Assembly: GCA_017993775.1 (NCBI GenBank)
Contig: JAGOMA010000023.1
Location: 1 to 64,000 of the forward strand
Reading direction: 5' to 3'
Length of the DNA: 64,000 nucleotides
Origin: Chloroflexota bacterium
GTDB taxonomy: Bacteria > Chloroflexota > Anaerolineae > Promineifilales > Promineifilaceae
Notes under the pieces: model-generated
Databases searched by the model: none
What the model was told of the DNA's origin: nothing
Seen by the model: the letters and a program-made list of their open reading frames with translations, nothing else
Position numbers and translations under genes: made by a program
Shown here: positions 35,080-61,560 of the stretch, piece after piece
Numbering within the stretch: position 1 is the first letter of the stretch
How the letters are laid out: each line of letters opens with the position of its first letter

Positions 35080-35143
35080 GACTAGAGACTGGCAAATCTC
35101 CAATCTCCAATCTCTAATCTCCAATCTCCAATCTCTAATCCTT
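35080..35143. repeat. Heptad array between MaoC and CoA-ligase genes
   Basis: GACTAGA units and then CAATCTC / CAATCTC / TAATCTC units with a 7-nt period fill the whole gap and include the stop codon of the CoA ligase. Confidence 0.85.
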
Positions 35144-36680: not shown

Positions 36681-36742
36681 CGGAGTGCGGAGTGCGGAGT
36701 GCGGAGTGCGGAATATTCCGCACTCCACACTCCGCACTCCAC
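36681..36742. repeat. AGTGCGG heptad hairpin
   Basis: Four AGTGCGG units, then GAATATTC, then CGCACTC / CACACTC / CGCACTC. The two blocks are reverse complements, forming a stem of roughly 25 bp between the DUF35 and CoA-ligase genes. The same unit appears inside two genes at 40571 and 51880. Confidence 0.9.
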
Positions 36743-41988: not shown

Positions 41989-42027
41989 CTCCGCACTCCG
42001 CACTCCGCATTCCGCACTCCGCACTCA
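41989..42027. repeat. Heptad array at the stop of the KAS III gene
   Basis: CCGCACT units repeat five times (one is CCGCATT). The stop codon of the KAS III-like gene (42025-42027) falls at the array edge. Confidence 0.85.
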
Positions 42028-43083
42028 TTCGCCCCAGCGCACGATGCCGGCTGCCCAGACGTAGCCAATGCCCGCCGCCACAATCGCCATCAGATCGCCG
42101 TCTTGGAGACGGCCGTGTTTCAGCCCTTCGCGGATGCCAAACATGGCGTCTTGCTCGCCGGTGTGGCCGATGTCGTGCAGGTAAACAGACTGCTCGTCGG
42201 TCAGGCCGAGGCGATCCAGCATTTCTTTGTGGCCGGAGGGCTTGATGAGGACCATGTTCAGGAAGTCCAGGTCGGCTTTGCTGTAGGGCGCGCCATCGGG
42301 CCGGGGGCCGCTTTTGCGCAGCGCCTCGTCGACGCACTTCACCCAGTTGTCCATGCTGACGGCGTTGAGGCGGTCCTTCATCAAGTCCGGTTCCACCAGA
42401 TCGAAGTAAAAATCAGTTTCCGTGACGCCCTGCGGCGCGGCCATGGCCTGCGGATTGGGGAACCGCGCCGTGCCGCTGGCGGGCACGATGACGTGTTTGC
42501 TCATGTAGCCATCGGCGATGAGGTGACTGCCTAAAACGTGGTTGCGCGGGTGGTTTTTGCGCAGCAGCATCGCCCCGCCGCCGCTGCCGATGTTCCACAA
42601 AAAGGTAGTGCGCGGATTTTGGAAGTTGATGAAGTCGGACACGCGGTAGCCGCCAGCAATGAGGACAGTGTTGATTTCCGGGTCGGCGATCATCATGTCT
42701 TTGGCCATTTTCATGGCCCCGACGGTGGTGGCGCAGCGGGTATGCACATCCATCGCCCAGGCGTTGGTCGCGCCGATTTCATAGGCCAGATGAATGCCGC
42801 TGGTCCAGAGGGTGTATTCGCGCCACTCCTCCGTGGTGCAGAGGACGACGTCAATCTCTTCCGGCTGGATGTCGGTCTGGCTGAGGCAGTCGAGGGCGGC
42901 TTTAATGCCCATTTCGTTGGGCTGATCGTCTGGCCCGGCGACGTGTTTTTGGCTGATGCCAAATTTGTCGCGGATGACCCATTCCGGGTAACCGCTGCGG
43001 GCGGCGATGTCGGCGGCGGTAAGCACGCCTTGCGGCGAGTAGGTGCCAATGCTGGCAATTCCGACAGTGGGTGGTTGGTTCAT
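42025..43083 (-). CDS. Atypical KAS III-family thiolase-fold protein
   Basis: This 352-residue enzyme is similar to 3-oxoacyl-ACP synthase III. It starts VGIASIGTYSPQG and has the catalytic Cys in DVHTRCATTVGAM (about residue 116). A His lies in IKPSGHKEML. The third catalytic position, usually Asn in a GNTSAAS-type motif, reads DIGHTGEQD, so His replaces Asn. Related enzymes with altered triads include HMG-CoA synthase-like and OleA-like proteins. The start ATG overlaps the stop of the 71-residue gene (ATGA), so the two are coupled. It may condense or cleave an acyl-CoA of this cluster. Confidence 0.85.
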   Translation of the reverse strand: MNQPPTVGIASIGTYSPQGVLTAADIAARSGYPEWVIRDKFGISQKHVAGPDDQPNEMGIKAALDCLSQTDIQPEEIDVVLCTTEEWREYTLWTSGIHLAYEIGATNAWAMDVHTRCATTVGAMKMAKDMMIADPEINTVLIAGGYRVSDFINFQNPRTTFLWNIGSGGGAMLLRKNHPRNHVLGSHLIADGYMSKHVIVPASGTARFPNPQAMAAPQGVTETDFYFDLVEPDLMKDRLNAVSMDNWVKCVDEALRKSGPRPDGAPYSKADLDFLNMVLIKPSGHKEMLDRLGLTDEQSVYLHDIGHTGEQDAMFGIREGLKHGRLQDGDLMAIVAAGIGYVWAAGIVRWGE

Positions 43084-43295
43084 AAGGTTTCGGGAGGTTG
43101 GTTTCGTGCTTGTTGTCTGGCTTCTGGCTCGATGGCCACATAATTTGCCATAAACTTCAGCGCGTCGGTCATGTTGGTGAAGCGGATTTCTTCGCTGGTC
43201 TGGACGTGGCGGATGAGGCCGCGCCAACCGGCGTCGTGTTCGTCTTGCTCCTGGATGAAGCGGATAATGAAGGAGGTAACGGCCGTTTCGGACAT
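43080..43295 (-). CDS. Small conserved-type protein coupled to KAS III
   Basis: This 71-residue acidic protein has no signal peptide. The core GWRGLIRHVQTSEEIRFTN followed by a short helix (ALKFMANYV) resembles small uncharacterised proteins with a G-W-R-G-x-I-x-H-V pattern. Start ATG 43295 has AAAGGA 7 nt upstream; a longer frame would run through the regulatory region. The stop overlaps the KAS III start, so both come from one mRNA. A role as partner or regulator of the KAS III protein is a guess from coupling. Confidence 0.7.
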   Translation of the reverse strand: MSETAVTSFIIRFIQEQDEHDAGWRGLIRHVQTSEEIRFTNMTDALKFMANYVAIEPEARQQARNQPPETL

Positions 43296-43396: not shown

Positions 43397-43411
43397 ATGG
43401 GGACAAATCTG

Positions 43412-43630
43412 ATTTCTGAGGCACAGAAATAGTTTCTGGCCGTGATGATCTCGTTTCTGACAGCGCAGATCTCGTTTCTGAGCCGTAGAAATGGTTTCTG
43501 GCATTGTGGAAATGATTTCTGGCGGCGCAGACATGGTTTCTGGCGTTATAGAAATGGTTTCTGAGCCGCAGAAATGGTTTCTGGCACTGTAGAAATGGTT
43601 TCTGAGCCGCAGAAATGGTTTCTGGCGGCC
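43412..43630. repeat. Array of 11 TTTCTG elements at 20-21 nt spacing
   Basis: The copies of (G/A)TTTCTG start at 43412, 43432, 43453, 43474, 43494, 43515, 43536, 43557, 43577, 43598 and 43618. Between neighbours the usual sequence is a variable 6-7 nt block and then AGAAATG. The repeating CAGAAATGGTTTCTG is a 6-3-6 palindrome. The mean spacing of 20.6 nt is two helical turns, so all sites face the same side of DNA. The array lies between a hairpin terminator and the KAS III operon promoter. No open frame or CRISPR feature explains it. Confidence 0.9.
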
Positions 43631-43633
43631 ATT

Positions 43634-43666
43634 AGACCCTAAGGGTTTTTGAAACCCTTAGGGTCT
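43634..43666. terminator. GACCCT-AAGGG hairpin, likely terminator
   Basis: GACCCTAAGGGTTT pairs with AAACCCTTAGGGTC across a loop of three to four nt. It lies downstream of the hydrolase gene at 43705-44748 (minus strand) and separates it from the KAS III operon. Confidence 0.7.
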
Positions 43667-43704
43667 ACAAAAGATGTGGGTGAGGGGAAAAGGGGAAACG
43701 GCCG

Positions 43705-44748
43705 TTACCCCAAATGCGCGTGAAACACCGCGTTAAACTCCGCCGGTTTCTCCAGGTACGGCGAATGCCCCGCGTCGGCAATCGCCACTTCCTCATACAC
43801 CCCGCCCTGCGCCTGATACGCCTCCAACACCGCCCGCGTCTGCGCCAACATCGGCTGCGGCGGGCATTCCTCCACGCCGGGGTAGCCGGGCACTGCGCCC
43901 ATCGCCCCCAACGCCGCCAGATCAAACAGCGCCATGTCGCCCACAATCAAATCATCCGCGCCGCGAACCCACAGGATGGGCGGCTTCGGTTCAATCGACG
44001 GCAGGGCGCTGGCGTTAAAGTATTTGCGGTTAAAAGCCGGCAGCACCCCTTTATCGCCAGGAGCCGCCCCCGGCCAGTTGGTGGAAGGGACAGAATTGCC
44101 CGGATACCAATCATCGCCAATGCGCGTGGTCAGCATGGAACCGATCAGCGCCTCTTCCCGTTCGGGAATAAACGGCGGTTTCACGTAAAACTGCCGGAAC
44201 ACATTGCGCGGCGACATCGGATTTTCCAATCCGCGATCCCCATCGGCCAGCGCCTGCACAAAATCGGGGTTGATGCCTGTCGGCGCGCCATCGTCATAAG
44301 TCATGGCCCCGTCTGTGCCCTTGCTGCCGCCGTAGCCATAAGGCGACATCGGGTCCGCCAGCGTAATGGTCAGCAGCTCGGCGGCGTGGGCGATGGCGTA
44401 TTTCATGACAATACCGCCGCCCATGCTGTGCCCGATAATGTGATACCGACTCAAACCCAGCGCCTGCGCCAGGCTGTGAATATCGGCCACCATGTCGCTC
44501 AGGCCCAGGGTGGCATCGATAGGCAGCGTTTCCGTGTCGCCGTAACCGCGCAAATCCACGGCAACGCCGCGAAAACCGGCCGGCAGCGCCAGCATGGTTT
44601 CTTCCCAATACGTGGCCGACGAGACGTTGCCGTGCACAAAAAGCACCGGCACGCCATCTTCCGGCCCGCTCAACAAAACATGAATAGTCAGGCGGTCCGT
44701 CTGGACCATTTGTGAAGTAATTCCGGGTAAAGTTGGGACAGTAGGCAT
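43705..44748 (-). CDS. Alpha/beta hydrolase
   Basis: This 347-residue hydrolase is larger than the one at 38.6 kb because of a cap insertion (about residues 140-245). It has the oxyanion segment VLFVHGNVSSATYW, nucleophile elbow GHSMGGG (about residue 115), an acidic position in LWVRGADDLIVGD and the catalytic His in AGHSPYLEKPAEF. The promoter has two 11-nt direct repeats and a TATAGT -10. It probably belongs to the acyl-CoA cluster and may hydrolyse an ester or thioester. No precise substrate can be named. Confidence 0.85.
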   Translation of the reverse strand: MPTVPTLPGITSQMVQTDRLTIHVLLSGPEDGVPVLFVHGNVSSATYWEETMLALPAGFRGVAVDLRGYGDTETLPIDATLGLSDMVADIHSLAQALGLSRYHIIGHSMGGGIVMKYAIAHAAELLTITLADPMSPYGYGGSKGTDGAMTYDDGAPTGINPDFVQALADGDRGLENPMSPRNVFRQFYVKPPFIPEREEALIGSMLTTRIGDDWYPGNSVPSTNWPGAAPGDKGVLPAFNRKYFNASALPSIEPKPPILWVRGADDLIVGDMALFDLAALGAMGAVPGYPGVEECPPQPMLAQTRAVLEAYQAQGGVYEEVAIADAGHSPYLEKPAEFNAVFHAHLG

Positions 44749-44832
44749 ATGGCTTTTCTCCTTTGGGAAAATTTAAGGCAAAGATGCAGAGGCGCAGAGA
44801 AAAATCTGCGTCATCGGCGAAGTCTTGTTTTG

Positions 44833-61469: not shown

Positions 61470-61560
61470 GGGCGATTTTCGATTGACGATTTGCGATTTT
61501 CGATTTTCGATTGGCGATTGGGTCTATCTCCAGTCTCTAATCTCTAATCTCTAATCGCCC
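61470..61560. repeat. Heptad array between pstS and pstC
   Basis: CGATTTT / CGATTGA / CGATTTG / CGATTTT / CGATTTT / CGATTGG units, then CAGTCTC / TAATCTC / TAATCTC / TAATCGC. The pstS stop codon at 61551 lies inside the last units. Confidence 0.85.

What the first reader, a model, noticed from the sequence alone, without database searches (positions are those of the whole stretch)
43412..43630. Array of 11 palindrome-forming TTTCTG elements spaced two helical turns, upstream of the KAS III operon
Eleven (G/A)TTTCTG copies at 20-21 nt spacing (mean 20.6) alternate with AGAAATG blocks and create repeated 6-3-6 palindromes. Two helical turns put every site on the same side of the helix, ideal for cooperative binding of one protein. 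The array stands exactly between a terminator hairpin and the direct-repeat promoter of the KAS III operon. It is not a CRISPR (no spacers of 30 nt) and has no convincing open frame. It may be a multi-site operator for an acyl-responsive repressor or a nucleoid-type filament. I do not know a described example.
Basis: partly seen in the sequence, partly recalled or inferred. Interest (0 to 1): 0.82.

Follow-up and report, generated by a model that had tools for sequence, protein, structure and literature searches.

The report
Orphan 21-bp array of PQLLE-gene system
The repeat array is a stray copy of a DNA element, about ten sites spaced two turns of the helix apart, that in its home setting sits just in front of genes for an unstudied two-domain protein family (PQLLE), so it probably marks binding sites of an undescribed bacterial DNA-binding system rather than a switch for the neighbouring fatty-acid genes.

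Summary
The array is real: eleven TTTCTG copies at 43413-43619, spacings only 20 or 21. It is not private to the KAS III operon. The same genome carries at least nine further TTTCT arrays of 20/21 bp, mostly beside unrelated housekeeping genes, several between convergent genes. Following them led to a gene family: all three copies of NCBIfam NF052641 ("PQLLE family", function unknown) in this genome have a 21-bp array just upstream. Across Chloroflexota, 42 of 54 PQLLE-type genes, and 6 of 7 in a later test genome from another class, have such an array upstream, against 8 of 377 control genes (one of them a PQLLE gene). The period is 21 in sequences otherwise unrelated. Units share only a weak code, two GYAAC-like half-sites about 10 bp apart; the protein is itself a duplicated domain. 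The window array matches one home array, that of a PQLLE gene in a sister species (score 185, null 17). I read it as an orphan array: trans sites for a PQLLE-type protein. Association and phasing are shown; DNA binding by PQLLE and the purpose are inferred. No description was found in the papers searched. The KAS III operator idea is not supported.

The parts
43411..43626 (+). Orphan 20/21-bp tandem array, 11 TTTCTG units (type GGTTTCTGAGCCGCAGAAAT, 20 nt, and GGTTTCTGGCACTGTAGAAAT, 21 nt), oriented as the home array on the coding strand of the PQLLE gene G001:C235
   Evidence: class assignment by local alignment score 185 against null 16.8 and 78% identity over 199 nt
43633..43667 (.). Perfect hairpin TAGACCCTAAGGGTTT-TTG-AAACCCTTAGGGTCTA at the right edge; a dispersed palindrome of this genome, not specific to the array
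   Evidence: sequence; more than ten further copies
43080..43295 (-). 71-aa ORF (MSETAVTSF...), first ORF left of the array; neighbour, not part of the system
   Evidence: no Pfam match
42025..43083 (-). KAS III-like gene (ACP_syn_III domains); neighbour, not shown to be controlled by the array
   Evidence: relatives lack the array
43705..44748 (-). Alpha/beta-hydrolase-like gene whose 3' end faces the array; neighbour
   Evidence: function by reading the sequence only

Best explanation
The array is an orphan copy of the cis element of a two-part system: a gene for a PQLLE-family protein (two homologous halves of about 105 aa) and, just upstream of it, a tandem array of about ten 21-bp units, each unit holding two half-sites about one helical turn apart. 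Most likely each PQLLE protein (or a complex containing it) binds the units of its own array side by side on one face of the DNA, probably one protein per 21-bp unit and one half per turn, giving a phased nucleoprotein stretch that controls its own gene. Orphan arrays elsewhere, such as this one, are further sites for the same protein in trans. Shown here: the association, the 21-bp phase, locus-specific units with a weak common half-site code, noncoding nature, the internal duplication of the protein, purifying selection on one orthologous pair, orphan arrays at the same sites in two species. Inferred: that PQLLE is the binder, the one-half-per-turn fit, autoregulation, and the role of the orphans (anchoring or bridging of DNA, or local regulation). 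I put membership of the window array in this array class at about 0.9 and the binding mechanism at about 0.5.
For: Own-genome pattern search: 81 matches against 2 for the reversed control, about ten arrays. All three PQLLE genes of the genome have an array just upstream. 42 of 54 PQLLE-type genes have a 21-family array within 700 nt upstream against 8 of 377 control genes, and no upstream array has another period. Separate test in another class of the phylum: 6 of 7. Lag spectrum: identity 0.63 at 21, 0.38 at 20, 0.35 at 22, 0.62 at 42. Common half-site code 7.12 bits against 5.35 +/- 0.13, column similarity at offset 10 with z 3.8. Protein halves homologous, HHalign 99%, E 3.3e-18. Units similar only between close homologues and on the same strand. 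No RNA-structure signal, no consistent open frame. Window array matches the home array of G001:C235 (score 185, null 16.8, next best 25 on the same strand).
Against: No DNA-binding domain is recognised in PQLLE, and the proteins of this genus are acidic (pI 4.6-5.2), although many others have pI above 9. The home gene of the window's class is not found in the assembled host genome, so this particular array may be a relic. Three intact-looking PQLLE genes lack a detectable array (G180:C361, G180:C404, G379:C427). Some home arrays end only 15-38 nt before the start codon, which is awkward for an operator upstream of a promoter.
Confidence: 0.5

Rival explanations
1. The arrays are bound by some other protein (a host regulator or nucleoid protein) and PQLLE is only the regulated product, with no DNA-binding role.
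For: PQLLE has no known DNA-binding domain and is acidic in this genus. A weak code common to all units could reflect one conserved binder.
Against: Paralogs in one genome have clearly different units, and units track the close homologues, as expected for locus-specific recognition. Family and arrays were found together in several orders.
Confidence: 0.22
2. Neutral or selfish minisatellite: arrays expand by slippage and spread as noncoding repeats, with no binding function; orphans are copies of gene-linked arrays.
For: Unit turnover by whole units between species, and shared flanks between gene-linked and orphan arrays of the CCC class.
Against: The 21-bp step is constant while sequence is not; 48 of 61 family genes carry it at the same place; no other period occurs upstream. 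Slippage alone predicts varied periods.
Confidence: 0.12
3. The array works as RNA: a transcribed leader with repeated motifs bound by a protein or processed to small RNAs.
For: Home arrays lie on the 5' side of the gene in a fixed orientation between close homologues; some end 15-38 nt before the start codon. The window array itself folds strongly.
Against: Folding of 35 home arrays does not differ from unit-permuted controls (z -0.01). Orphans lie between convergent genes. A sharp 21-nt step has no evident reason in RNA.
Confidence: 0.08
4. One reading: multi-site operator of an acyl-responsive repressor for the KAS III operon.
For: The array lies about 115 nt upstream of the operon's first ORF.
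Against: Sister arrays stand at unrelated genes and between convergent genes. KAS III relatives lack the array. The array's nearest match is upstream of a PQLLE gene, with the opposite orientation relative to the downstream gene.
Confidence: 0.04

Closest known systems
NCBIfam NF052641 PQLLE family protein
   Same: The genes with home arrays belong to it, or to a sister group just below its cut-off.
   Different: The family is defined by protein sequence only; no function was shown in the output and no paper naming it was found. The window holds only the array, not the gene.
Iteron arrays upstream of plasmid rep genes (RepE/RepA type; own knowledge)
   Same: Direct repeats of about two helical turns just upstream of the gene for a protein made of two homologous halves; locus-specific repeat sequence.
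   Different: PQLLE does not match Rep or winged-helix families; no plasmid relative; orphan arrays on the chromosome; no replication genes seen next to the arrays that were read.
ParR/parC-type centromere repeats (own knowledge)
   Same: Helically phased direct repeats upstream of the gene for a partition component.
   Different: No ParM/TubZ-like partner was noticed next to the PQLLE genes; the genes mostly look like single genes; several dispersed arrays per genome.
Dispersed noncoding prokaryotic satellites (PMC6749651)
   Same: Noncoding tandem repeats of one family at several places in a genome.
   Different: The survey finds such families rare (Leptospira, Methanocella) and, in the parts read, links none to a protein gene.

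Membership tests
PQLLE-linked 21-bp array class (defined here) | Noncoding tandem units at 20-21 bp, several copies | tested here: met
   11 units, spacings 20/21 only
PQLLE-linked 21-bp array class (defined here) | Unit class shared with a gene-linked home array | tested here: met
   score 185 to G001:C235 against null 16.8
PQLLE-linked 21-bp array class (defined here) | PQLLE gene directly downstream (home array) | tested here: not met
   no PQLLE gene beside the array; three elsewhere in the genome: hence 'orphan'
Iteron / Rep replicon | Rep initiator encoded next to the repeats | tested here: not met
   PQLLE has no Rep or winged-helix match in Pfam or PDB
Iteron / Rep replicon | Located on a plasmid or other replicon | tested here: inconclusive
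   no plasmid match of the protein; host contigs carry housekeeping genes, but replicon identity was not tested
ParR/parC partition system | ParR-type adaptor and filament-forming NTPase in one operon | not tested
   no such neighbour was noticed by reading ORFs near the arrays; not searched systematically
CRISPR array | Conserved repeats with unique spacers of about 30 nt | tested here: not met
   continuous 20-21 bp units, no spacers
Acyl-responsive (FadR/FabT/TetR-like) operator | Array kept with the fatty-acid operon in relatives | tested here: not met
   KAS III loci of relatives lack it; sister arrays at unrelated genes
Heptameric short tandem repeats (3 x 7) | 7-bp submotif inside the unit | tested here: not met
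   TRF reports no 7- or 14-bp period in the array, though many elsewhere in the window

The most novel reading that the evidence does not exclude
PQLLE proteins are a new class of two-domain DNA-binding proteins that read DNA one half-site per helical turn and assemble as a phased filament on self-specific 21-bp arrays. Each paralog diverges to its own array sequence, and orphan arrays scattered over the chromosome serve as anchoring or bridging points of a chromosome-organising or self-recognition system.
Probability: 0.35. Interest if true: 0.9.

Novelty: categorically new. Interest (0 to 1): 0.8.

Why it matters
A protein family with no assigned function is tied, in at least two classes of one bacterial phylum, to an upstream DNA array whose sequence is free to change but whose 21-bp step is not. 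That is a strong sign of a protein assembly read along one face of the helix, and it gives an unknown family a concrete testable partner. If each paralog reads only its own array, the system offers many natural orthogonal protein-DNA pairs. It also suggests that at least some dispersed satellites in bacteria derive from such a gene-linked element.

Tried and rejected
KAS III operator: rejected because sister arrays lie at unrelated loci and KAS III relatives lack the array. RNA hairpin array: the window array folds well, but 35 home arrays show no excess over unit-permuted controls. Palindrome as the defining feature: absent from most sister arrays. Coding heptad repeats: no consistent open frame in 42 home arrays; the G022:C96 array (L115) was dropped because, by reading, it lies in a coding heptad stretch. 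Heptamer origin (3 x 7): no 7-bp period inside the units. Retron or RT link: the G001 home array stands near an RT-AlbA_2 gene, but no RT was noticed at the other PQLLE loci read. Plasmid or phage origin: no plasmid match, no IMG/VR relative. One common regulator site: units are mostly unrelated below about 60% protein identity, apart from the weak half-site code. Structure prediction of PQLLE was not run, since the tool does not list genome-search loci among the proteins it takes.

Full report
OBSERVATION. The palindromes exist (three perfect 6-3-6, others 5-3-5). The flanking hairpin (43633-43667) is a dispersed palindrome of this genome.

THE ARRAY IS ONE OF A FAMILY. In the host genome (Chloroflexota, going by the organisms of the closest KAS III relatives; 6.0 Mb in 113 contigs) the pattern TTTCT-15/16-TTTCT-15/16-TTTCT occurs 81 times, against 2 for the reversed control. 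The matches fall into ten arrays plus one chance hit in a hairpin. Spacing is always 20 or 21. Units fall in classes (CCATTTCTCCCGGTGAAGCAR with CCATTTCTCCCGCGTCGGAA; TCATTTCTGGCAGCGGATGAC; GGTTTCTGAGCCGCAGAAAT). Neighbours are unrelated genes, and four arrays lie between convergent genes. Two orphan sites (DnaJ-like / 191-aa gene; MFS-like / 665-aa gene) are kept in the sister species G001; the aligned arrays differ by a whole 21-nt unit at one site and by about one unit at the other. In a 659-kb sample of the genome not chosen for these repeats (apart from the window itself), noncoding 21-bp arrays of ten or more units appear three times: the window, one with unit CGTTTGTACGCGGTTGGATGG, and one of 2 x 21 bp. 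Most other long-period arrays are coding or built from heptamers or hairpin repeats.

THE HOME OF THE ARRAYS. Three arrays stood just upstream of homologous 216-241 aa ORFs. These are NCBIfam NF052641, PQLLE family (E 1e-58 to 1e-69), with no significant Pfam, PHROG or PDB relative and no relevant PADLOC match. The genome has three such genes; all three have an array 80-150 nt upstream of the start. Searching 98 relatives and then 396 genomes of the class gave a patchy distribution, 8 and 19 genomes, often with several paralogs. Of 54 gene hits, 42 have a 21-family array in the 700 nt upstream. Control genes of the same genome: 8 of 377, one of them itself a PQLLE gene. Nine of the 12 exceptions are hits missing their N-terminal part or with a short upstream contig; three (G180:C361, G180:C404, G379:C427) remain unexplained. 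Two of 54 downstream regions also passed the period filter, with 84- and 43-bp palindromic repeats of another kind. A sister subfamily below the NF052641 cut-off behaves alike. A later phylum-wide scan gave one new PQLLE-rich genome from another class, G687; 6 of its 7 genes have 21-bp arrays of 6-17 units upstream. None of 14 well-known control genomes has the family. A 200-kb sample of a relative without PQLLE shows no noncoding 21-bp array, and a 185-kb sample of G168 shows only the gene-linked one.

WHAT IS CONSTANT AND WHAT IS NOT. Mean windowed self-identity over 51 upstream regions is 0.63 at lag 21, 0.38 at 20, 0.35 at 22, 0.62 at 42, 0.58 at 63. Unit sequences match only between close homologues and on the same strand; paralogs about 90% identical within G111 already differ clearly. 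Rotating 26 non-redundant units against each other leaves a weak common code on the coding strand, roughly G-A/T-G-Y-A-A-C ... A-G-C-A-A-C: 7.12 bits against 5.35 +/- 0.13 for column-permuted controls. Columns resemble those 10 positions away (z 3.8), so a unit looks like two half-sites one turn apart. The protein is likewise a duplicated domain (HHalign 99%, E 3.3e-18, 107 columns). One orthologous pair shows dN/dS of about 0.23 (0.035/0.155). Arrays are not coding and not structured as RNA beyond controls.

THE WINDOW ARRAY. Among 42 home arrays it matches one clearly, G001:C235 (score 185, null mean 16.8, max 22; the rest at most 25 on the same strand, 44 on the opposite strand for the CCC class), which lies about 130 nt upstream of a PQLLE gene. 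That gene and its locus are not found in the assembled host genome. The window array is therefore an orphan of a class whose home gene is seen only in the sister species, or lies in the missing part of this assembly.

MECHANISM. Best supported: arrays are one-face binding platforms read about every 10.5 bp, most simply by the PQLLE protein encoded next to them, with orphan arrays as trans sites. Shown: association, phase, code, duplication, conservation. Inferred: the binder, autoregulation, purpose. The acidic charge of this genus' proteins speaks against direct binding and is the main reason for the moderate confidence.

KNOWN OR NEW. The anatomy works like iterons or ParR/parC (own knowledge), but it cannot be filed there: the protein is not a Rep by family search, and no plasmid relative was found. 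Literature searches for PQLLE and for 21-bp arrays found no description; the prokaryotic satellite survey calls dispersed noncoding families rare (PMC6749651). The held library is open-access only, so an earlier description elsewhere cannot be excluded.

Noticed in passing
window 43633-43667 and many contigs (L003-L006, L008, L153): Palindrome AGACCCTAAGGGTTT-n-AAACCCTTAGGGTCT is dispersed over the genome, also in variants (GACCCGAAGGGTTT, GACCCCAAGGGTTT) arranged as tandem blocks of 45-157 bp.
   Followed up: no
window 44755-44826: About 70-bp dispersed repeat between the hydrolase and the next gene; dozens of 76-95% identical copies in the sister genome G001.
   Followed up: no
window, e.g. 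35095-35140, 36681-36742, 61471-61556: Many intergenic heptameric tandem repeats, a different class from the 21-bp arrays.
   Followed up: partly
L080:5296-6879: Reverse transcriptase (best PADLOC models RT-Protease_XI / RT-TIR_XII) with a C-terminal AlbA_2 domain, 470 nt from the home array of G001:C235 on the other side from the PQLLE gene.
   Followed up: partly
L164:1-1500: A second PQLLE gene of G028 lacks its N-terminal third and is preceded by an ORF that reads like a REP-associated (Y1-type) transposase (not family-searched).
   Followed up: no
G000:C18:132559-132807 (L222): Remnant of the sister PQLLE subfamily in the host genome, C-terminal 81 residues only.
   Followed up: no
G028 whole genome: The reversed control pattern (TCTTT at 20-21 bp) has 17 matches in G028, which also has PQLLE genes: possibly orphan arrays of another unit class.
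   Followed up: no
L117:9230-9420 (G071): Decayed 21-bp array between a DnaE-like gene and a PIN-like gene (names by reading) in a genome without a detected PQLLE gene.
   Followed up: partly
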